Assembly (NCBI GenBank): GCA_036172665.1
Contig: CM069870.1
Location: 27,998,001-28,062,000 of the forward strand
Source: Prosopocoilus inquinatus
Lineage: Eukaryota > Arthropoda > Insecta > Coleoptera > Lucanidae
Length of the DNA stretch: 64,000 bases
Direction of reading: 5' to 3'
The notes under the pieces were generated by a model that ran no database searches, was not told the origin of the DNA, and saw only the letters and a list, made by a program, of their open reading frames with translations. The position numbers and the translations under genes were made by a program. Of the stretch, positions 6,832-52,927 are shown piece after piece (the first letter of the stretch is position 1; each line of letters opens with the position of its first letter).

Positions 6832-6883
6832 AAAAAAATTATGAAAAATTTTGTGCAAATCGTTTTTGATTGCAGTGAGAACC

Positions 6884-6949
6884 TCGAGCAGCCTCTGGAC
6901 AGCTGTTTCAGCCCTGCTTGGGGCTTCTTCAGCAGAAACGTAGCTCGAC
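6884..6949 (-). ncRNA. type I hammerhead ribozyme (predicted, core intact)
   Basis: On the minus strand the core reads CUGAAGA (6932-6926), then stem II of 5 bp (AGCCC/GGGCU with loop CAAGCA, 6925-6910), then GAAA (6909-6906). A two-pair stem III (AC/GU) closes over an AGCU loop, followed by the cleavage triplet GUC (6900-6898). Stem I is formed by CUG (6935-6933) with CAG (6897-6895). Beyond an internal loop it continues with CGAGC (6947-6943) paired to GCUCG (6889-6885). Every conserved hammerhead nucleotide is present. Known: short-stem-III type I hammerheads occur in Penelope-like elements and animal retrozymes. Self-cleavage between 6898 and 6897 is predicted but not shown. Confidence 0.72.
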
Positions 6950-7012
6950 ATTCCCACTGCAGACCAAAAACGACTTGCCCAATTTATTCTCAAATGCGAT
7001 GTAAGAATGATG

Positions 7013-7118
7013 AACATTAAAATAGCGACATCTTACTATCGCTTTTTGACCTAACATTGTCTATCCTACTGCAATGTTAGGTCAAAAAGCGATAGTAAGA
7101 TGTCGCTATTTTAATGTT
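7013..7118. repeat. perfect 47-bp palindrome with 12-nt loop
   Basis: Positions 7013-7059 are an exact reverse complement of 7072-7118, with loop tctatcctactg between. The arm sequence (ggtcaaaaagcgatNgtaNg and tgtcgct) is shared with single-arm copies at about 41067-41103, 44983-45020 and 48010-48050. It is therefore the conserved terminal part of the hammerhead family and not a random hairpin. Confidence 0.92.
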
Positions 7119-7131
7119 TAAAAAAATTATG

Positions 7132-9083: not shown

Positions 9084-10318
9084 ATGGACAATTCTATCAA
9101 AGTGGCCCATCTTAATATTCGCTCACTTTTGCCGAAAATCTCTAACTTTCGCGATTTTATTTTGCAAAACAGTATTAACATTATGATTGCATCGGAAACG
9201 TGGCTAAGTGCTAATATTCCTACAGAAATTATAATTTTGAATAATTTTTCATTCATTCGTAATGAACGTCCCTGTCGTGGCGGCGGAGTAGGTGTATATG
9301 TTAACAATTCTCTTAGATATTCTGTTATCGGATCTAATAAATCAATTGAACTTGACTTGAATCATTTGTATTGGGTGTTGTCTATAGACCACCACATATG
9401 TACCTGAAATTTTTTTTGGATGAATTTGAAAACACCATTGCACTATGTTTGCCTTTTTCTGATAAGATTATTTGCTGTGGCGACTTCAATGTAGACTTTC
9501 TTAACATTAACAGTACAGCGACAACAATCTTTTCTAACCTTTTGGAAGCTTATAATCTGAAGCAAATCATTAATCAGCCCACAAGGCTATCATTTAATTC
9601 TTCCTCTTTAATTGATTTGTTAATTGTTTCTGACGAAATTTCAGTTGTGGGTGGTGGTATAGTCTCATGTCAGCTATCTGATCATGATTGTATTTTCGGT
9701 AATATTGTTACTACACAACCTTGTGTAACTCCAGTTTTTCGTGTATGTAGGTCTCTTAAGAATATTGACTTAACTAAGTTTAATCACGACTTACATCTTC
9801 TGCCTTTGCAAGAAATATTTAACATTACTGATATTAATGAAAAAGTCCACTTTTTGAACAACTGCATATTAACACTTTTTGACGTACACGCACCTTTGGT
9901 GATGCGAAAATTTACAAAATCTTACAAGCCTTGGCTTACGCCTAACTTGAAACTCTTAATGGAACTTTGTGATAAAACGAAAGCCAAATTTAAGAAAACA
10001 AGACAGCAGGCACACTGGGACTACTATAAGTGTTTAAGAAACCTCACTATATTTACTTACAGAAAAGAACGGAAAGCTTATTTCAATTTTATTTCTAATC
10101 ATTCTGACTGTAAAGCTTTGTGGAGAAATTTGAATTCATTAAATCTTAGTAAGAGGCACGAATCTGTTCCTGCTCATTTAAGTAATGTTGATGCTATTAA
10201 CAATTACTACATTAACTGTGTTTCCAATTCTCCTCACATCTATGATTCGAATCTTGATAATTTGAATTTTAACTTTTTGCCTCTTGACGCCGATAGTGTA
10301 CTTAAATTGATTTATTAA
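9084..10318 (+). pseudogene. LINE endonuclease domain and linker, frameshifted
   Basis: The first part (ATG at 9084) reads VAHLNIRSLLPK, then the catalytic-glutamate block IASETWLS, then GGGVGVYVN. A frameshift lies between about 9371 and 9407. The second part, in the other frame, continues GVVYRPPH, CCGDFNVDFL (Asp/Asn pair) and the terminal QLSDHDCIFG histidine block, and ends at TAA 10316-10318. These are the ordered signature blocks of apurinic/apyrimidinic-like endonucleases, which nick target DNA to prime reverse transcription. The stop at 10316 interrupts a frame that continues as KSNAAGCDGID, so the true protein ran on into the reverse transcriptase. The element cannot encode a full enzyme. 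Confidence 0.85.
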
Positions 10319-11818
10319 TTCAAATCTAATGCTGCTGGTTGCGATGGAATTGACCTTAAAATGATTAGGCTGTGTTTACCATGTATAATTCCTTATATAA
10401 CCCATATTTTTAACTGATGTATTGCTGACAGTACTTTTCCCTTCAGTCAGGAAATTACCTCTTTGTACGTCCCGTACCCAAAATTAAGTAACCTGCTCCG
10501 TACAAGGACCTACGTCCTATTAGTTTACAGTGCTGTCCAAAATATTTGAAAAAATTATCAACAAACAATTAACAACTTTCCTGAATAAATTTAAAATACT
10601 ACTACCTCCTAATCAATCAGGTTTTCGACCAGGTTTCAGCTGCACAACAGCTTGATGATATTTTAGCCTCGTGTGATCACGGAAAAATCACTCCGCTTGT
10701 ATTACTAGACTACAGTAAAGCTTTCGACACCGTTAGCCATTTAACTCTTACTTCATTACTGTCTCATATTGGCCTCAGTCCTAATGCAGTATCTCTGATA
10801 AGCAACTACCTTCAGGATAGGACACAAATCGTCAAGTTAGATCTACTAGAAATTCTCATTTTCTGAGCCGCTGCTTGTTTCACAAGGTGTCCCTCAAGGA
10901 TCTATATTGTGCCTTACCTTATTTACAATTTATACCTCGAAATTTACGGAGCACATCTATCATTGTAACTCACATATGTATGCTGATGATTGCCAACTCT
11001 ATCTTAGTTTGATGCCTGCTGATTGGCGGCTAGCACAATCAGAAATTAATGCTGACCTAAATAGTTTGAATAATATTTCTCTCAGTCACTGTTTCATATT
11101 AACCCAGACAAATCCGCGGTTCTTCTTTTTGGCAAAAAGGCAACCTGTAACTCTCTTCTGAAAGTTTTGAATATTAGTATCAATAATATTAAAATTCCAG
11201 TTGTTGTCAAATCCTTCGATTAACACTTAATAATTCTTTTAGGTACAGGGAACAGATTACAAAATACATCAGCAATGCTTATATCAGTTTAAAAAATTTG
11301 TATCCACATAGATTTTACTTAAGTATAGAGTTGAAAAAAGACTAAGTGATGCATTCGTCCTATCACAGTTTGCGTATTGCGCACCAATTTATCATGCCTC
11401 CATTGATGGTATAACTTGTAACCGTATTCAAAAATTACAGAATGCTTGCCTTAGGTTCATATATGGCATCAGAAAATTTGAACATATCTCGCATAAGCTA
11501 GTTGATGCTGGTTGGTTGACTATGTATAATCGCAGAGAAATTATTTCTCTCTGTCTTTATCATAAAATTATAACTCTCCAACACCCCTCTTATCTGTACA
11601 ATAAGATTAGGTTCCGTTCGGATATACATAACATTATTACAAGATTTAGGGGTCTCGTTACACCTCCGGCTCATATTACGACAATCTTCGAAAGATCTTT
11701 TTACTTTCAGATTTATTGTAAATATAATGAACTACCCGATCACTTTAAACTTCTCTCTTCGTTTTTGTTTAAAACTAAGTTGCGGCAATTACTACTCTAT
11801 AAACAAAACGCCACATAA
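10319..11818 (+). pseudogene. LINE reverse transcriptase and C-terminal region, decayed
   Basis: Ordered reverse transcriptase motifs are present but spread over several frames. They are NAAGCDGID after 10320, DYSKAFDTVSH near 10708-10740, VSQGVPQGSIL near 10875-10910, and HMYADDCQLYLS (the catalytic YxDD) near 10972-11008. A C-terminal open segment, 11516-11818, contains FYFQIYCKYNELPDHFK, matching the 'WNxLP' region found near the end of CR1/Jockey-type proteins. Multiple stops and indels between 10380 and 11500 show it is long dead. Confidence 0.82.
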
Positions 11819-14586: not shown

Positions 14587-14727
14587 TATTTCTAATGTGT
14601 AATAGGTAAACTACGAATTGGTGTATCGGGATCTTTGGATTACGTTTATCAACAAAAATAATGCAATAAATGGGATGGACTTGATTAACAAAACATATTT
14701 AGCAAACTACAATTTTATTAAAACTTT

Positions 14728-14851
14728 GTTGCCAATCGTTTTTCATTACAGTGGAACTCTTCGCTTTTACTGACGAATCCCCAAATAGAGCAGAAACAGC
14801 TGTACAGACGATGCTCTAGGGATCTACTGCAATCAAAAACGATTTGCAATA
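14728..14851 (+). mobile_element. hammerhead-family element, copy B
   Basis: A compact member consisting only of the inverted arms and ribozyme region: ccaatcgtttttcattacag (14732-14751) and ctgcaatcaaaaacgatttg (14827-14846) are inverted to one another. Between them CTGACGA (14770-14776), GAAA (14793-14796) and the cleavage triplet GTA (14802-14804) are all present on the plus strand. Stem II (14777-14792) has lost much of its pairing, so activity is doubtful. There is no palindromic tail as in copy A. Confidence 0.75.
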
Positions 14852-14859
14852 AAATTTTT

Positions 14860-15788
14860 AAAATATGTTGTATTGATTAAAGAGAAATGGGTTTAAAGAA
14901 GAAATTAAGAAAATTAATCTGCTGCAACTTTCTTGTTATTGGATTTTGGATAAAGCTGAGTTAAGAAAAAACTTTATTTTTGATTTCCTATGGCTTCAAT
15001 CTCTTCCTTACATTGTGATGCACCCAGTGTAAGAAGCTTATGTTGGTTTCTGTATTAACTAGTTCTAGGTCAGTCTGATTGCGGATTAAATTAATTCTTT
15101 TTTAATTTAATTTGTCTACCTAAGTATCTTAATAACATACATAATATTTATATTATTTACTTTCTACCACAATCCACAATCCATTTTCTCAACGAAGAAC
15201 TTTTCATGCATTAATTCGCCACAATTCAAGGAATTATAGGGAATATGTGTTGGCCTCTCAAGAACAGAACGCTTCGTAAGAGATCGATCAAAATCAAATC
15301 TGAAGTGTTAGTAAACTCGCTGAACTTTTTTTTACTTACTGCCTTATTTAATACACCATTTGGTACAGTTAAAAATTCGTTTTCAATCCGGAAAGTTAAA
15401 CATGTGATAGAAGGCGATATGTTAGGTGTCGCAATAACAAATTCGACCAATTTGTTGTAACTTCCGAGAGTGCTCAATTCTGCGACCCCTCCTTGTCGTT
15501 ATGTTTATAAATGAGATCGTTGACATTGGCAATTTATCTGATGGAACTCAGACTATTTATCTGATAGCAAAATGTGCGTAAAATAATTGTATTCAATGCT
15601 TCTCACTTAATGCTACTGATCAATTTAACTGAATAATCTGTCTGCAACTGCGACTGAAGAATGAATTTAATAAATTTGTTGTTATAGAAAGTGTCTCTTA
15701 AAAGAAATTAATTATAGTAGCAGCATTACAGATATTATTGTGTTGTACTTATATTGTTGATTAATTATATGAATTATTAATCATTATA
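14860..15788. other. non-coding stretch, no gene seen
   Basis: Only small unremarkable open frames on both strands and no repeat structure noticed. Confidence 0.4.
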
Positions 15789-38011: not shown

Positions 38012-39296
38012 CGTGGGCTGCTGGAAAATTTTCTGAAATCTAGTAGGTCTAGAATTGTTAGCGTTTATCAACTGTCATATTTGAAAAATTTGACGTTTTT
38101 CGCCTATAATTCTATTGACAGTTCCTATCCAAGTGAACTAGTTTTGTTTGTACAGCATTTGAGAAAAAGTAATTTTGTTTAAACATGGAAATCTCGCGTG
38201 AAAATTTTTGTGCCAAGATTCTTTACGATTTCAAATGTGGTCTAACGCCGAAACAATGCCTCGATCGGCTTCATTTGGCTTTTGGAGATGAAGCACCATC
38301 AAAGAGCAGTGTTTATAATTGGTTTGCCGAATTCCAGCGTGGATGTACCTCTCTCAGTGACGAATTTCGTGAAGGTCGTTCATCAACATCTGTTGTTGCC
38401 ACTAATGTAGATGCTGTGCGAGAAATGCTTGAGTGAGATCGACAGGTGACATACCGTGAGATTCAAGCATCTTTACGCATTGACATGAGAGCAATAAACC
38501 AGATTTTGCAAGATAATTTGAACGTACGAAAGCTTTGCCACACAATTTAAGAGAAGCGCAAAAGCAGGGACGTGTCAAAGTCCAATGGTGTGAAGAAATG
38601 CTCAAGAAATTCAATGGAGGTCGTTCAAATCTAGTTTATAACATCGTTACTGGTGACGAAACGTGGATCTATTTGTACGAGCCAGAAAGTAAACAACAAT
38701 CTACCGTTTGGGTATTTCAAAATGAACCAAAACCAACAAAAGTTGTCCTTTCACGCAGTGCTGCGAAGCAAATGATTGCTTGTTTCTTTGGTTTAACTGG
38801 ACATGTAACAACCGTGGCTTTAGAGGATAGAAAAACCGTGATTGCTGATTGGTATAGTACAATTTGTTTGCCGGAACTCATCGATCAAATAAGAAGAAAC
38901 AATCGAAATCGACGAATTATTCTCCATCATGACAACGCCAGCTCTCACTCAGCCCGTCAAACAGTTGATTTTTTGTCCAACAAAAATGTTGAATTAATGA
39001 CTCATTGTCCATATTCACCTGATTTATCACCTAATGATTTCTTTTTGTTCCCAAATATCAAAAATAAAATGCGTGGTGAGCGATTTTCGTCGGCCGAAGC
39101 AGCGGTTGAAACATTCCGGACACTGGTTTCTGAGGTACCATCTTTAGAGTGGAAAACGTGCTTTAGAAATTGGTTCGAGCGTATGCAAAAGTGTATTGAC
39201 GTCAAAGGCGAATACTTCGAAAAACAATGATACCGTTTACCAAATTTCATATGCGTTTTTTCATACCATTTTCAGAAACTTTTCCAGCAGCCCACG
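38012..39296 (+). mobile_element. mariner element, copy 2, both ends present
   Basis: The ends CGTGGGCTGCTGGAAAA and TTTTCCAGCAGCCCACG are perfect inverted repeats over 17 bp and continue with one mismatch to about 27 bp (TTTCTGAAA). TA lies on both sides (38010-38011, 39297-39298). An alternative reading two bases further out would also give TA, but copy 1 diverges immediately after CCCACG-TA, which supports the ends given. Length is 1,285 bp, typical of mariner. Confidence 0.95.
38185..39230 (+). pseudogene. mariner transposase, broken copy 2
   Basis: The start codon at 38185 opens MEISRENFCAKILYDF, the usual N-terminal leader of mariner transposases, then the helix-turn-helix block. A CGA-to-TGA change stops it at 38434-38436. 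Further on, 13 bp present in copy 1 (about 314-326) are missing at 38538, shifting frame. From about 38535 to 39230 the frame is open for 231 residues and contains all three catalytic aspartates: GDETWI, HHDNASSHSA and SPDLSPNDFFLF. The last two are 34 residues apart (D,D34D). It keeps the 60 bp deleted from copy 1. The enzyme is dead, though its catalytic half is intact. Confidence 0.95.
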
Positions 39297-40919: not shown

Positions 40920-41383
40920 ATAATTGAAATACACCTCCGCCCACAATAATTTTTATTATTAAAAAAATTTTGTGCAAATCGTTTTTGTTTTGACAGCAAG
41001 CATGGCCGCCTTGCATGGGGGACTTATTACGTAGCAAACCCGCTTCAATTTGTCTATCCTACTGCAATGTCAGGTCAAAAAGCGATCGTAAGATGTCGCT
41101 ATTATATCTGTTAATAATTTTTATATCCTTACCTACGTATTTCGCCATCTTCAGTACGCTACCAACTTAAAAGCACTAAAAAATGTCTAAAAACAACAAC
41201 AAAATCATAATCACACTGACAAAATCATAAAAATGTTAAACCTTCATGATTTTGTCAGACTCAATTAGGTTGTTTTTAGACATTTTTTAGTGCTTTTAAG
41301 TTGGTAGCGTACTGAAGATTAGCTGCCGAAATACGTATCTACGGATATAAAAATTATTGTGGGCGGAGGTTTATTTCAATTAT
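40920..41383. repeat. foldback element interrupted by a hammerhead-family insertion
   Basis: The right arm (about 41240-41383) is continuous: tttttagacattttttagtg, gttggtagcgtactgaagat, ggatataaaaattatt, gtgggcggaggt. The left arm is its reverse complement but is split in two (40920-40956 and 41113-41205) by an insertion. Both arms contain a CTGAAGA...GAAATACGTA motif (plus 41312-41337; minus 41154-41134) like a hammerhead core. Stem II is missing in the left copy and poor in the right. The loop is about 35 bp. Confidence 0.85.
40957..41112 (-). mobile_element. hammerhead-family insertion with 12-bp target duplication
   Basis: Inserted into the left arm of the surrounding foldback. The uninterrupted right arm shows the empty-site sequence, so the duplicated target AATAATTTTTAT (40945-40956 and 41113-41124) is certain. 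The insert starts with ttttgtgcaaatcgtttttg, as in copy A, and ends with the ggtcaaaaagcgatcgtaag, atgtcgct arm. The ribozyme core itself is deleted. This copy defines both ends of the family. Confidence 0.85.
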
Positions 41384-43313: not shown

Positions 43314-43888
43314 TAAATGTACTTAGTTCATATTAGGTTCGCGTTGGCCAGGTGAACGTTTCGGTAACAAATTTTGAAGGTTAAAAATACTTTACATGCA
43401 AAAGTCGTTCGCTGCAATTTAAAAGTGCTTGTTTCTTTTTCAACTCCAATACACATTCAAAGGGTTTCGCTTTTTTGACATACTGTCTCGGCAGCTACAC
43501 ATTTTAACTTTAATTTATAATTTGTCAAATGATAACGAAATATCAGATGATCAGCTGAAGTTTTTGAATTTCCTAATATTTAGGTAGCTTTTTTACCAAA
43601 ATTAAAAACATTTGACAGAATATAGATATATGTATTGAAAGATTTACTAACAGATCCAAAAGAATGGTTGTGAAAAGTCTCTGCACAGTTTCAAAAAGAA
43701 AACGAAAATCTGTAAAATATAGAGTAATTATTAAAAGACGCCCAGCTTTAGATATCTAGTATCGAAAGTATGAAGTTTGCCTTGAATAAATCATCTACAG
43801 AATATTGAATAAGTGTCAATAAATAAATATAAACTAAGTGTGTGGTCGCGAAGATGAAAAACGGGACGAAATAGTCTTATCGCCCATC

Positions 43889-44030
43889 GTCAATTTTTAA
43901 CCTAACCTTTTGTCAGAATGACAAATGGTAACAGCTGTTTTGGTCTGTTTGACCAATTAAACTGACCTGTCTTGATTATCATTAGTTACCATTTGTCGTT
44001 CTGAGACAAGTTAGAACAAAAATTGGCCGT
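43889..44030. repeat. inverted repeat next to hammerhead copy C
   Basis: Arms of about 42 bp (caatttttaa, gacaaatggtaac at 43889-43931, and the mirror 43985-44025) are inverted. It stands about 95 bp upstream of the ribozyme copy at 44124-44211 and may be part of the same insertion. The boundary is not resolved. Confidence 0.75.
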
Positions 44031-44120
44031 GCAATAAGGCAATACGAACTGTTGTCAACTTTGCACTTGATTTCGAGATAACCCAAAGAGATCAGTTTGA
44101 TGCAGTTAGAATTCTTGAAC

Positions 44121-44180
44121 CACTCTTGCCTTTGCTGAGGAGGCCCCAAGAAATAGCCGAAACAGCTGTTCAAGGAAGTC
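44121..44180 (+). ncRNA. hammerhead-like ribozyme, copy C
   Basis: Core CUGAGGA and GAAA are intact, with cleavage triplet GUU (44168-44170). Stem II pairs only three bases (GGC 44142-44144 with GCC 44156-44158) over a long loop. Stem I pairing is partial (UUG with CAA next to the core, then CC with GG across a bulge). It may be weakly active or inactive. Confidence 0.5.
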
Positions 44181-44211
44181 TACTGCAATCGAAAAGACTT
44201 GCAGTTAATTT
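44124..44211 (+). mobile_element. hammerhead-family element, copy C
   Basis: Contains the plus-strand core CTGAGGA (44135-44141), GAAA (44159-44162), cagctgtt and the right arm ctgcaatcgaaaagacttgc. The left arm of the inverted repeat is not evident. Same orientation as copy B. Confidence 0.65.
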
Positions 44212-44702
44212 ATTGTTTCTAAATTTTAAAATTCTGAGTTTAGCTTATAATGTCACGGTCTAATTTTTAACTTCAGTAACAAAATTTAAAAAAAATCATA
44301 ACGTATGTACACACTTGTGCACTTTACCAAGATTTCGAAAAAATAATTTTAATTCAATGTTTATGGTTTGAATGGTCCTAAGCAGTCTAAAAAACGCTTA
44401 GTATAAATTTAACTGCAGAAATGATGCCCTTAACGAAGAAAACAAGTAAAAGTTAAACGAAGCTGATTATGTAATAGAATGCTTAAAAAAACTTTTGAAA
44501 ATGTTTAAGAAAAAAAAAGAAGTTTACCCATTAAATGAATTGAGGAGATAAAACTAAGAAGATGAAGGAAAGCGTAAAAGAAATAGACATAAAAGGAAAA
44601 GGAAACTTTAAATAATAAGGAACCGAGATGACTAGAATGTATCTGAAGTTCAAACAACGCCATTTAATGGATGACCAACCATAGTTTAGAAAGTGAATTA
44701 TA

Positions 44703-45025
44703 AAAAATTTTGTTGCAAATCGTTTTTGATTCCAGCGAAAACCTCGAACAAGCCTCTGTACAGCTGTTTCAGCCCTATTTGGGGCTTCTTGAGCAGAAAC
44801 ACAGCTCCAGATTTTCACTGCAAACCAAAAACGACTTGACCAATTTATTCACAATTGCTATATAATAGTGATGAATAGATAAAATACCGACATCCTACGA
44901 TCGCTTTTTGACCTCACTGCAATCAAAAACGATTTGCAACAATTTTTTTTTAAACTTTCACTTTTGTCAATTCCTTTGCAATGTTAGATCAAAAAGTGAT
45001 CGTAGGGTGTCGCTGTTTTCATGAA
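44703..45025 (-). mobile_element. hammerhead-family element, copy D, with 9-bp target duplication
   Basis: Flanked by TGAATTATA on both sides (44694-44702 and 45026-45034). It has the same plan as copy A: arm gcaaatcgtttttgattcca, ribozyme region (minus strand, 44767-44793), opposing arm, then the gacatcctacgatcgctttt and aaaaagtgatcgtagggtgt segments. The ribozyme core has CUCAAGA where CUGANGA is required (a G-to-C change at the essential G5), so it should be inactive. A further ctgcaatcaaaaacgatttg arm at 44921-44940 suggests partial internal duplication. Confidence 0.8.
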
Positions 45026-51212: not shown

Positions 51213-52110
51213 CCTATAAGGAAAGACGCTAAATAAATAATAGTCTTGGTTGATATTTTCTTATTTCTTGCTTGACTTTTCGAATTTAAAGTTAAATGTT
51301 AATTTAAATTACTATAAATGTCTTTTAAATTCCCACTCTCTAATTAAACTACAGAAAATGTTAGAATTGGCTCAACTGCGTGTTATACTTCTTACACATG
51401 TGCATGGTATAAACAATTTTGCGCAGAAACTAGAAGTTGTACATCGGTGCCGATCGAAATCTTGCCGTAAATTATAACGTTCAATAAGCAGTTTCCTTGG
51501 AAAGGCGGCATGCATTTAATATTCTACAGTGAAATAAGTTGGCGTATAAAATAAGTAAGTACGTAATAATTTACCGCGCTCGGAGCTGTTCTCTTCGGAA
51601 TTATTAAACCGCTTTTTAATTTAATATTTAATACGTCGATAAGGCAGGCAAACAAATTGTTTAGAAAGGAGAACAGTCTCGACCTGAGAATTTTCAAGGA
51701 GTGCACGTAATTTTTGAACACGTAGACGTGCACGTAATTTATCAGGGTTACAGGTTATAATTCTTGGTACAAAATTACTTCAAAGTGTTTGTTTCAGATA
51801 TACCATAGAAATAGGTTAACTAATTTCGTTCAATCTATTCTTAAACATTATTTGAAACAATTTCAATCCAATATCTAATGTTTTATTTCATTTATTATTA
51901 TTGAAATTAAATACACTCTTTTGAATGTGAATTAAATTCCGAGCAATATGAGACATCAATAAAAATGCACAGTTCTTGAATAAATTATAAAATTAATTTA
52001 TTGATTATTCAATTAAAAAAAAACATTCTCCTATCTCAAAGCTTGAGATATAATAAATAATTCACCGAAATAACTTTTATAAGTAACAATAAAACAATAT
52101 AACATTAATC
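51213..52110. other. non-coding stretch, no gene seen
   Basis: No recognised feature; short open frames only. Confidence 0.4.
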
Positions 52111-52111
52111 T

Positions 52112-52232
52112 TACTGCAAGTCGGCTAGATTGCAATGCAGCGTTTTCTGTATAGCTATTTTAGCTCTAATTGAGACCTCCTCGGAAGAAGAGTAGCTCGA
52201 CAAATCCATTGCAATCTGGCCGACTCGGCAGC
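52112..52232 (-). mobile_element. hammerhead-family element, copy E, decayed
   Basis: Inverted arms gtcggctagattgcaatg (52120-52137) and its mirror (52207-52226) enclose a minus-strand ribozyme region with CCGAGGA for CUGANGA and AAAA for GAAA. The core is therefore dead. The arms differ from those of copies A-D (cggctaga in place of gtttttga), suggesting a subfamily. Confidence 0.65.
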
Positions 52233-52927
52233 GCGTAATTGCGGACAATAGCTTAAGACTCATCATCGTGCTGCTGGAGGTTTGGCCTTAAACTGCGCGA
52301 AAAATTGCGAATAACAACCACTGTCTGATAAAAAGTCACGCACGAAACGTCCGTATTGACCGCTTTGTGTCAGTAAACTATTTAAAATGAAAGACTGACG
52401 ATAAAGAAGAAATAAAAAGCGTCTAAGAAGTTGCAAAATACATTTGTCAAAACAGATCGGAACTTACTAATTTGCTATTGTTAATTCTTGGAAAACTCAC
52501 AATCAGTTACTTCTCCCAAAAAAATCCCAGTTTTTTTTAAGATGTCAGAGTATTTCTCAACTATAGAACGGGAGGAAACAAAGTATTCAGCAAATATGAA
52601 ATCTGCGATTTTTGTATAAAAAGCTTTCCTTAATCAAAATCCGGTAAAAAGCAAAACGAAATCATAAGGAGCCAAGGAAATTTGAAACATTGATCCCACA
52701 AAAGAGTGGAAAGAGAAATGAAATATAAAGTTATAGATAAATGAAAGAAGTCGGACGATACTCCGATGGAATAACTGAAAATTATTGCAGAATTAGTTGA
52801 AATATTAAAGAGTTAGATCAATAATCAATAATATAATCAAAATAAGAAAAATGTAAGAAAACAGGAGAAACTAAACCAAACAAAATAAGATTTAAATTAT
52901 GATTACAGCTATAATTCGTATTTTTAT
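52233..52927. other. non-coding stretch, no gene seen
   Basis: A-rich sequence; nothing recognised. Confidence 0.4.

What the first reader, a model, noticed from the sequence alone, without database searches (positions are those of the whole stretch)
6884..6949. Near-canonical type I hammerhead ribozyme in a dispersed insect repeat
The minus strand keeps CUGAAGA, GAAA and the GUC cleavage triplet. Stem II is 5 bp and stem III is two base pairs. Stem I is CUG/CAG, then an internal loop, then CGAGC/GCUCG. The stem I pairs lie far apart in sequence yet match, which is hard to get by chance. The internal loop in stem I and loop of stem II could form the tertiary contact that speeds natural hammerheads.
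Basis: partly seen in the sequence, partly recalled or inferred. Interest (0 to 1): 0.88.

Follow-up and report, generated by a model that had tools for sequence, protein, structure and literature searches.

The report
Beetle hammerhead retrozyme moved Penelope-style
A beetle-like genome carries many thousands of copies of a tiny mobile element of about 311 bases that encodes a probable self-cutting RNA, and the copies examined are built into the genome in the same unusual outward-facing pattern as the Penelope retrotransposons there, which suggests how such mobile RNAs are copied.

Summary
The motif is real and is a type I hammerhead. The minus strand at 6949-6884 holds all core bases; cleavage is predicted at 6898|6897. 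It lies in an insertion at 6844-7119 flanked by a 12-bp target duplication. The genome (650 Mb, beetle-like) holds 25,249 matches to the motif pattern; the reversed control gives 0. In an old subfamily sampled without reference to the core, core bases are 91% conserved and the two positions that hammerheads leave free (N7, H17) 53%; H17 is G in 1 of 28. Older copies match Rfam RF00163 (E down to 7e-5), below its gathering score.

The repeat is a ~311-bp, partly tandem element like metazoan retrozymes. New here: insertions are outward-facing inverted pairs with ~12-bp duplications. In 42 of 43 units with both ends typed, one end is monomer site ~311 and the other ~140 (35 further units could not be typed so). 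Penelope-like elements of the genome show a matching rule (15 of 15: one end with a ~37-bp tail, one without). I infer that Penelope machinery copies hammerhead-bearing circular or concatemeric RNA by priming on both target strands. Self-cleavage, circles and mobilisation are untested.

The parts
6884..6949 (-). type I hammerhead motif: core CUGAAGA 6932-6926, GAA 6909-6907, A15.1 6906 / U16.1 6899, H17 = C6898, predicted cleavage 6898|6897
   Evidence: sequence; descriptor scan
6891..6939 (-). stem I, 7 bp: GUUUCUG (6939-6933) with CAGAGGC (6897-6891); outer helix CGAGC (6947-6943) with GCUCG (6889-6885) beyond a 3x1 internal loop
6910..6925 (-). stem II AGCCC (6925-6921) / GGGCU (6914-6910), loop CAAGCA
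6899..6906 (-). stem III, 2 bp (AC/GU) closing AGCU; ACAGCUGU is a palindrome that can give an 8-bp stem III between two ribozymes
   Evidence: cofold
6844..7119 (.). whole insertion: minus-strand arm ending outward near monomer site 311 (6844), plus-strand arm ending outward near site 140 (7119)
   Evidence: window unit typed -311 / +140; edges set by the duplication
6832..6843 (.). target site duplication, left copy AAAAAAATTATG
7120..7131 (.). target site duplication, right copy AAAAAAATTATG
7013..7118 (.). perfect 47-bp inverted repeat (7013-7059 / 7072-7118): the meeting of the two arms
   Evidence: read as the second arm from the pattern
44701..44850 (-). second copy; core CUCAAGA (G5C), expected dead
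14724..14861 (+). third copy; core intact (CUGACGA) but stems I and II broken
44102..44211 (+). old divergent copy; core intact (CUGAGGA), stem I CUUUG/CAAGG, stem II GGC/GCC
52107..52224 (-). old divergent copy; core mutated (U4C, G12A)
44910..44947 (+). partial copy (3' end only)
40960..40999 (-). partial copy (3' end only)

Best explanation
This is one copy of a non-LTR retrozyme family of a beetle-like genome: a ~311-bp non-autonomous retroelement whose RNA carries a type I hammerhead. Tandem transcripts are cut at each hammerhead (probably by paired, dimeric hammerheads) and the units circularise or stay concatemeric. The Penelope-like protein of the same genome then nicks both strands of an AT-rich target about 12 bp apart and primes reverse transcription on both strands, at a different fixed internal site of the RNA on each strand (~311 and ~140). 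This gives outward-facing inverted insertions with a 12-bp duplication. Shown by sequence: the motif, its family-level conservation, the unit length, tandem copies, duplications, the two-site rule, and a matching rule in Penelope-like elements. Inferred: self-cleavage, circles, and mobilisation by Penelope.
For: Core-blind conservation: core 262/287, N7+H17 32/60, H17 = A12 C13 T2 G1. RF00163 sub-threshold full-length matches (5 of 10 loci chosen through the core pattern; 8 of 40 core-blind copies at E<=1). Old and young subfamilies differ by paired changes in stems I and II. Dimer cofold gives the exact double hammerhead. Tandem spacing 311-312 bp. Direct repeats >=9 bp at the edges of 41 of 56 units vs 23 of 427 swapped controls. 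Two-site outward ends in 42 of 43 units with both ends typed; arms cross the 311/1 junction in 13 of 31 and 17 of 21 units. GIY-YIG neighbours: 46 '-+', 1 '--', 0 '+-', 0 '++'; hammerhead neighbours 16 '-+', 3 '--', 1 '++', 0 '+-'. RT + GIY-YIG in one frame. Penelope ends: 15 of 15 tail/no-tail with 11-15 bp duplications.
Against: No transcript, cleavage or circle was seen. The lone motif folds better into a form without stem III. Stem II changes across dispersed copies are close to neutral decay: paired (3,14) 47/70 Watson-Crick vs unpaired (3,13) 27/49, p=0.25; the control slid by -1 has more two-sided changes (32) than the structure (22). Junction-crossing arms could come from transcripts of tandem arrays, not circles. 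Retrozyme and Penelope ends share no clear sequence in the loci compared. 35 of 78 units did not show two typed outward ends, and of the older units (L051-L080) only 7 of 28 did. In vitro, insertion by the anole Penelope enzyme does not need hammerhead cleavage and shows no difference in start site between strands (PMC11167929).
Confidence: 0.76

Rival explanations
1. A foldback or MITE-type DNA transposon whose inverted repeats contain a hammerhead look-alike by chance.
For: The element is strongly self-complementary (RNA fold z -9.97), many copies are inverted pairs, and descriptor hits of this quality occur about once per 100 random windows.
Against: Core-blind conservation follows the hammerhead fingerprint; RF00163 matches; unit length 311-312 with tandem copies; variable inner junctions; edge duplications of 9-14 bp, mostly 12; a matching insertion rule in RT-bearing elements.
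Confidence: 0.07
2. A conserved coding segment: the core is an alanine/glutamate-rich reading frame (AEEAP..AETAVQ), and N7 and H17 vary because they are third codon positions.
For: A 51-codon frame lies over the 52.2-kb copy and a similar frame over 6.9 kb (read by eye).
Against: Third positions of that frame other than N7 and H17 are as conserved (313/372) as first (358/434) and second ones (359/430). No candidate protein for the 51-aa frame in a search that needs three shared 5-residue words. The 14.8-kb copy has a stop and the 44.2-kb copy a frameshift in that frame (by eye).
Confidence: 0.03
3. The hammerhead family is real and Penelope-moved, but it works on linear concatemeric or antisense transcripts with self-priming, not on circles with two-strand priming.
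For: Tandem arrays exist, so junction-crossing arms do not need circles; the anole HHR is dispensable for insertion in vitro; antisense self-priming was proposed for rotifer Penelope elements (PMC3846280, passages).
Against: Both insertion ends are fixed outward 3' ends with a duplication, which two-strand priming gives directly; self-priming does not by itself predict two different fixed ends (inference); the anole enzyme cleaves and extends both strands (PMC11167929).
Confidence: 0.3
4. The hammerhead was real in old subfamilies, but the copy at 6.9 kb and its young subfamily are inactive relics amplified for other reasons.
For: No RF00163 match up to E 10 around the window copy or in the young trimer locus L035, and the lone fold is unfavourable.
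Against: Core intact in 76 of 85 copies in L001-L050 and the window (mostly fetched by a pattern that contains the core, so biased); the young dimer folds correctly.
Confidence: 0.2

Closest known systems
Metazoan non-LTR retrozymes (Cervera and de la Pena 2020, PMC7229834; passages seen)
   Same: type I hammerhead, 2-bp stem III with tetraloop, ~150-450 bp units in tandem copies, GC below 50% (44% in the monomer here), duplications longer than 4 bp, very high copy number possible
   Different: in the loci fetched here most units hold one hammerhead or an inverted pair, arrays beyond a trimer were not seen for the 312-bp unit, and insertion ends fall on two fixed sites; the passages seen report no integration mechanism and name Penelope elements as a strong candidate
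Penelope-like elements with hammerheads (PAc of Anolis, PMC11167929, main-text section read; rotifer Penelope, PMC3846280, passages, no hammerhead mentioned there)
   Same: inverted ends, an optional ~30-40 bp tail at one end, AT-rich targets, short duplications; in PAc a hammerhead near the internal RT start sites
   Different: the present element has no reverse transcriptase and is ~311 bp; its two end sites lie ~170 nt apart (~140 the other way round the circle), not 30-40
Newt / axolotl dimeric hammerheads (PMC7229834 passages)
   Same: weak palindromic stem III that needs a dimer
   Different: host, sequence, and a 2-bp stem III instead of a single pair (axolotl class 1)
Dolichopoda pDo500 satellite hammerhead (PMC2837043; search listing only)
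   Same: insect repeat with a hammerhead
   Different: a satellite family; the element here is dispersed

Membership tests
type I hammerhead ribozyme | core CUGANGA ... GAAA ... UH | tested here: met
   family level core-blind
type I hammerhead ribozyme | three helices, ends in stem I, supported by paired changes | tested here: met
   Pairing 86.8% over 10 unforced pairs; slid controls reach at most 62.0%; two-sided changes 22 vs 11.1 shuffled, 0/500; but the slide of -1 has 32 and the covariation score is reached by 29/500 shuffles, so the support is moderate. Subfamily majority strings change together at paired sites.
type I hammerhead ribozyme | covariance-model hit above the gathering score | tested here: not met
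   Window: none. Best relatives 31.6 and 31.3 bits vs 34. This is a threshold, not a structural feature.
type I hammerhead ribozyme | self-cleavage in magnesium | not testable with these tools
   needs the bench
metazoan retrozyme | short (150-450 bp) units, some in tandem | tested here: met
   311-312 bp; dimer L037, trimer L035
metazoan retrozyme | duplications longer than 4 bp, no ORF for RT | tested here: met
   mostly 12 bp; the monomer of 311 bp is too short for an RT
metazoan retrozyme | circular RNA in tissue | not testable with these tools
   arms crossing the unit junction are compatible but do not prove it
Penelope-like element | RT + GIY-YIG ORF | tested here: not met
   absent from the ~311-bp unit; present in separate elements of the genome
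Penelope-like insertion mode | outward inverted ends of two different lengths, short duplication | tested here: met
   retrozyme 42 of 43 typed units; Penelope 15 of 15 examined pairs
DNA transposon / MITE | matching terminal inverted repeats and one fixed duplication length | tested here: not met
   the two ends of typed units are different monomer sites and edge duplications run from 9 to 14 bp, mostly 12

The most novel reading that the evidence does not exclude
A Penelope-type enzyme, probably a dimer, grips one hammerhead-derived circular RNA and primes on both nicked target strands at two different fixed sites, one site per strand. Nearly every insertion is therefore a mixed pair; this rule is shared by the autonomous Penelope element (where it would explain the tail at one end) and the retrozyme, and it gives the missing integration mechanism of animal retrozymes.
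Probability: 0.45. Interest if true: 0.85.

Novelty: new variant of a known kind. Interest (0 to 1): 0.72.

Why it matters
How animal retrozymes integrate is open in the paper that named them; Penelope elements were called a strong candidate because both carry type I hammerheads, occur in tandem and live in the same genomes (PMC7229834, passage). Here both element types in one genome share a specific insertion signature, which turns that candidate into a testable mechanism and gives a concrete reading of the Penelope tail. The copies of the young subfamily tested with Rfam (the window copy and L035) are missed by RF00163, although the genome holds 25,249 matches to the family's pattern, so such families may be under-counted.

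Tried and rejected
Rejected: chance motif; plain MITE; coding segment (see rivals). Stem II covariation by genome-wide counts of double changes gave no clear result: paired (3,14) 70, (4,13) 43, (1,16) 141; unpaired (3,13) 49. A matching control for (1,16) was asked for and not answered. Searches for the element in phages, plasmids, viral contigs (3 pattern scans) and bacterial and archaeal contigs (1 pattern scan) found nothing. A protein search with the 51-aa frame found nothing. A whole-genome DNA search with the element returned 0, not even the window's own copy (I take this to be its stated skipping of very common words). A genome-wide RF00163 search was asked for many times and never answered. 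Tandem Repeats Finder missed the 312-bp dimer in L037; the repeat finder saw it.

Full report
Observation. Stem I is better than described: seven continuous pairs (GUUUCUG/CAGAGGC), a 3x1 internal loop, then CGAGC/GCUCG, and the complementarity runs on outward (128 nt folds at -72.8 kcal/mol, z -9.97). Rfam gives no gathering hit in the window, and for this motif only RF02275 at 14.5 bits, E 5.6, when the 2 kb around it is searched permissively (a weaker-than-threshold microRNA family also overlaps it on the other strand, E 6). A descriptor scan finds two places in the window, both of this repeat family; random sequence gives 430 hits, 59 of them as good as this one, in 6,300 window equivalents. 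The single motif could therefore be luck; the family decides.

Family. nhmmer finds five full copies in the window. The window lies in a 649,647,856-bp genome. The closest host-gene relatives that carry an organism name are beetles (Ignelater, Photinus, Lamprigera). The 34-place pattern with up to 3 mismatches matches 12,610 + 12,639 times, the reversed control 0 + 0. Of 85 copies covering the motif in L001-L050 and the window (87 places found), 76 keep the core, but most of them were fetched by a pattern that contains the core.

Core-blind test. I searched a 3' flank of an old subfamily (665 matches with up to 3 mismatches), took the first 40 listed places and aligned them. 32 of 40 keep at least 60% identity over the motif; 8 were dropped. 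In the 32, fixed core positions match the majority in 262 of 287, N7+H17 in 32 of 60 (p=5e-11) and stems I+II in 530 of 684 (p=1e-7). N7 is A19 G12 T1; H17 is A12 C13 T2 G1. Only 5 of 32 are intact at every core position, as expected of old copies. The rate is not a codon pattern: third positions of the one open frame, without N7 and H17, match in 313 of 372, first in 358 of 434, second in 359 of 430. The majority string is itself a full hammerhead with different stems (UCCCUUG/CAGGGGA, GGCCC/GGGCC) from the young one (GUUUCUG/CAGAGGC, AGCCC/GGGCU). RF00163 is matched full length in 8 of these 40 at E up to 1 (best 2.5e-4 and 3.5e-4), and in 5 of 10 other loci, which had been chosen through the core pattern (best 6.9e-5; the young trimer locus L035 was one of the five without a match). 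None reaches the gathering score.

Covariation. On 75 distinct copies (A3) the given structure pairs 88.6% of cells; slid versions reach at most 44.7%; two-sided changes are 57 against 24.5 in shuffles. Two stem II pairs had been forced to vary by my search patterns. Without them, and without stem III, pairing is 86.8% (slid at most 62.0%), two-sided changes are 22 against 11.1 (0/500), and the covariation score is reached by 29/500 shuffles; the slide of -1 has 32 two-sided changes. Genome-wide double changes in stem II are near neutral decay (p=0.25). So dispersed copies mostly decay, and the support lies in subfamily differences.

Fold. The lone motif prefers a structure in which GCUG (the last base of stem I with C3-G5) pairs with CAGC of the stem III strand and loop (-27.0 against -21.0 kcal/mol), but two copies cofold into the exact double hammerhead with an 8-bp stem III ACAGCUGU/ACAGCUGU (-57.9). 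Dimer action is reported for amphibian retrozymes (PMC7229834, passages).

Element. Same-strand neighbours lie 311-312 bp apart; L037 is a dimer at 98% identity and L035 a trimer. The monomer taken from L038 is 311 bp. Of 56 insertion units in L001-L047, 41 have a direct repeat of at least 9 bp at their edges (24 of the 41 are 12 bp), against 23 of 427 swapped flank pairs. Three units are counted twice in overlapping loci (two in L010/L011, one in L028/L029; all three have the repeat), so without them it is 38 of 53.

Two-site rule. Typed units are inverted pairs with outward ends, one at monomer position ~311 and one at ~140; in L001-L030 (the first 30 matches listed), 20 mixed and one 311/311 among 29 units; in L031-L047 (chosen as paired hammerheads), 15 mixed of 21; in L051-L080 (older, chosen through stem II changes), 7 mixed of 28; no 140/140. 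So 42 of 43 units with both outward ends typed are mixed; the other 35 of 78 units were untyped, truncated or in other arrangements. With equal, independent choice of ends the chance of 42 or more of 43 is 5e-12. The one 311/311 case (L010) has two separate repeats and may be two adjacent mixed insertions. Direct repeats of at least 9 bp flank 18/20, 13/15 and 3/7 of the mixed units. Arms cross the 311/1 junction in 13 of 31 units (two of the 31 are edge repeats of others in the overlapping loci L021/L022) and 17 of 21, so in those the template was circular or concatemeric. In the predicted circular fold, the longest unpaired runs are 137-151 and 301-311, the latter running on through 1-8. The window copy is such a unit: 6844-7119 between two copies of AAAAAAATTATG; the perfect 47-bp hairpin beside the motif is where its two arms meet.

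Link to Penelope. GIY-YIG domains: the best 150 of 2,232 candidates were scored; one open frame of 591 aa carries RVT_1 and GIY-YIG. Among these 150, neighbours within 7 kb are 46 '-+', 1 '--', none '+-' or '++'; among the 100 listed hammerheads, neighbours within 900 bp are 16 '-+', 3 '--', 1 '++', none '+-'. I examined 15 of the 46 pairs: five with short spacing in full, and the ends of ten more that stand next to each other in the listing. All 15 have one end with a ~37-bp tail and one without, with 11-15 bp duplications (chance 3e-5 if ends were independent). An inverted short/long pair with an optional tail is described for rotifer Penelope elements (PMC3846280, passages), and the anole enzyme starts internally at two sites and cleaves and extends both strands, with no strand difference seen in vitro (PMC11167929). 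What I have not found described is a hammerhead retrozyme obeying the same rule. Searches: in an open-access library only; the 2014 paper on Penelope hammerheads is not held.

Limits. No transcript, cleavage, circle or protein was tested. Retrozyme and Penelope ends show no clear shared sequence, so recognition in trans is inferred from architecture. Old units are hard to type. The species is not known beyond a beetle-like host.

Noticed in passing
L081 (G000:C7:47891000-47895100): Five copies of an old hammerhead subfamily with stem II AGUCC/GGACU (one with a further change) in a same-strand array at about 730-820 bp spacing, unlike the 312-bp unit.
   Followed up: partly
L082-L090: A distinct subfamily (CUGAGGA GCCCC..GGGUC) with a shared C.U mismatch in stem II and very uniform flanks; it looks amplified although its stem II is imperfect.
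   Followed up: partly
window 43880-44030: Another palindromic foldback repeat with AACAGCTGTT in it, next to the 44.1-kb copy.
   Followed up: no
window 44850-45020: Nested foldback arms (GACATCCTACGATCGCTTTTTGACC and its complement) around a partial 3' end, probably a second two-arm insertion into the 44.7-kb copy.
   Followed up: partly
window 38517-39230: Mariner-type transposase frame (type named from recall), up to 77% identical to proteins from public assemblies over nearly its whole length; several relatives are named SETMAR.
   Followed up: partly
window 9356-11818: Fragments that look like a non-LTR retrotransposon ORF (endonuclease/RT); judged by eye, no search made.
   Followed up: no
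window 52108-52270: A 51-codon frame starting with ATG covers the dead 52.2-kb copy; no protein relative found.
   Followed up: yes
L149-L173: Penelope-like elements of this genome look young (arms 99.2-99.7% identical in the four of five loci whose self-match was printed), and the 15 pairs examined have a tail at exactly one end.
   Followed up: partly
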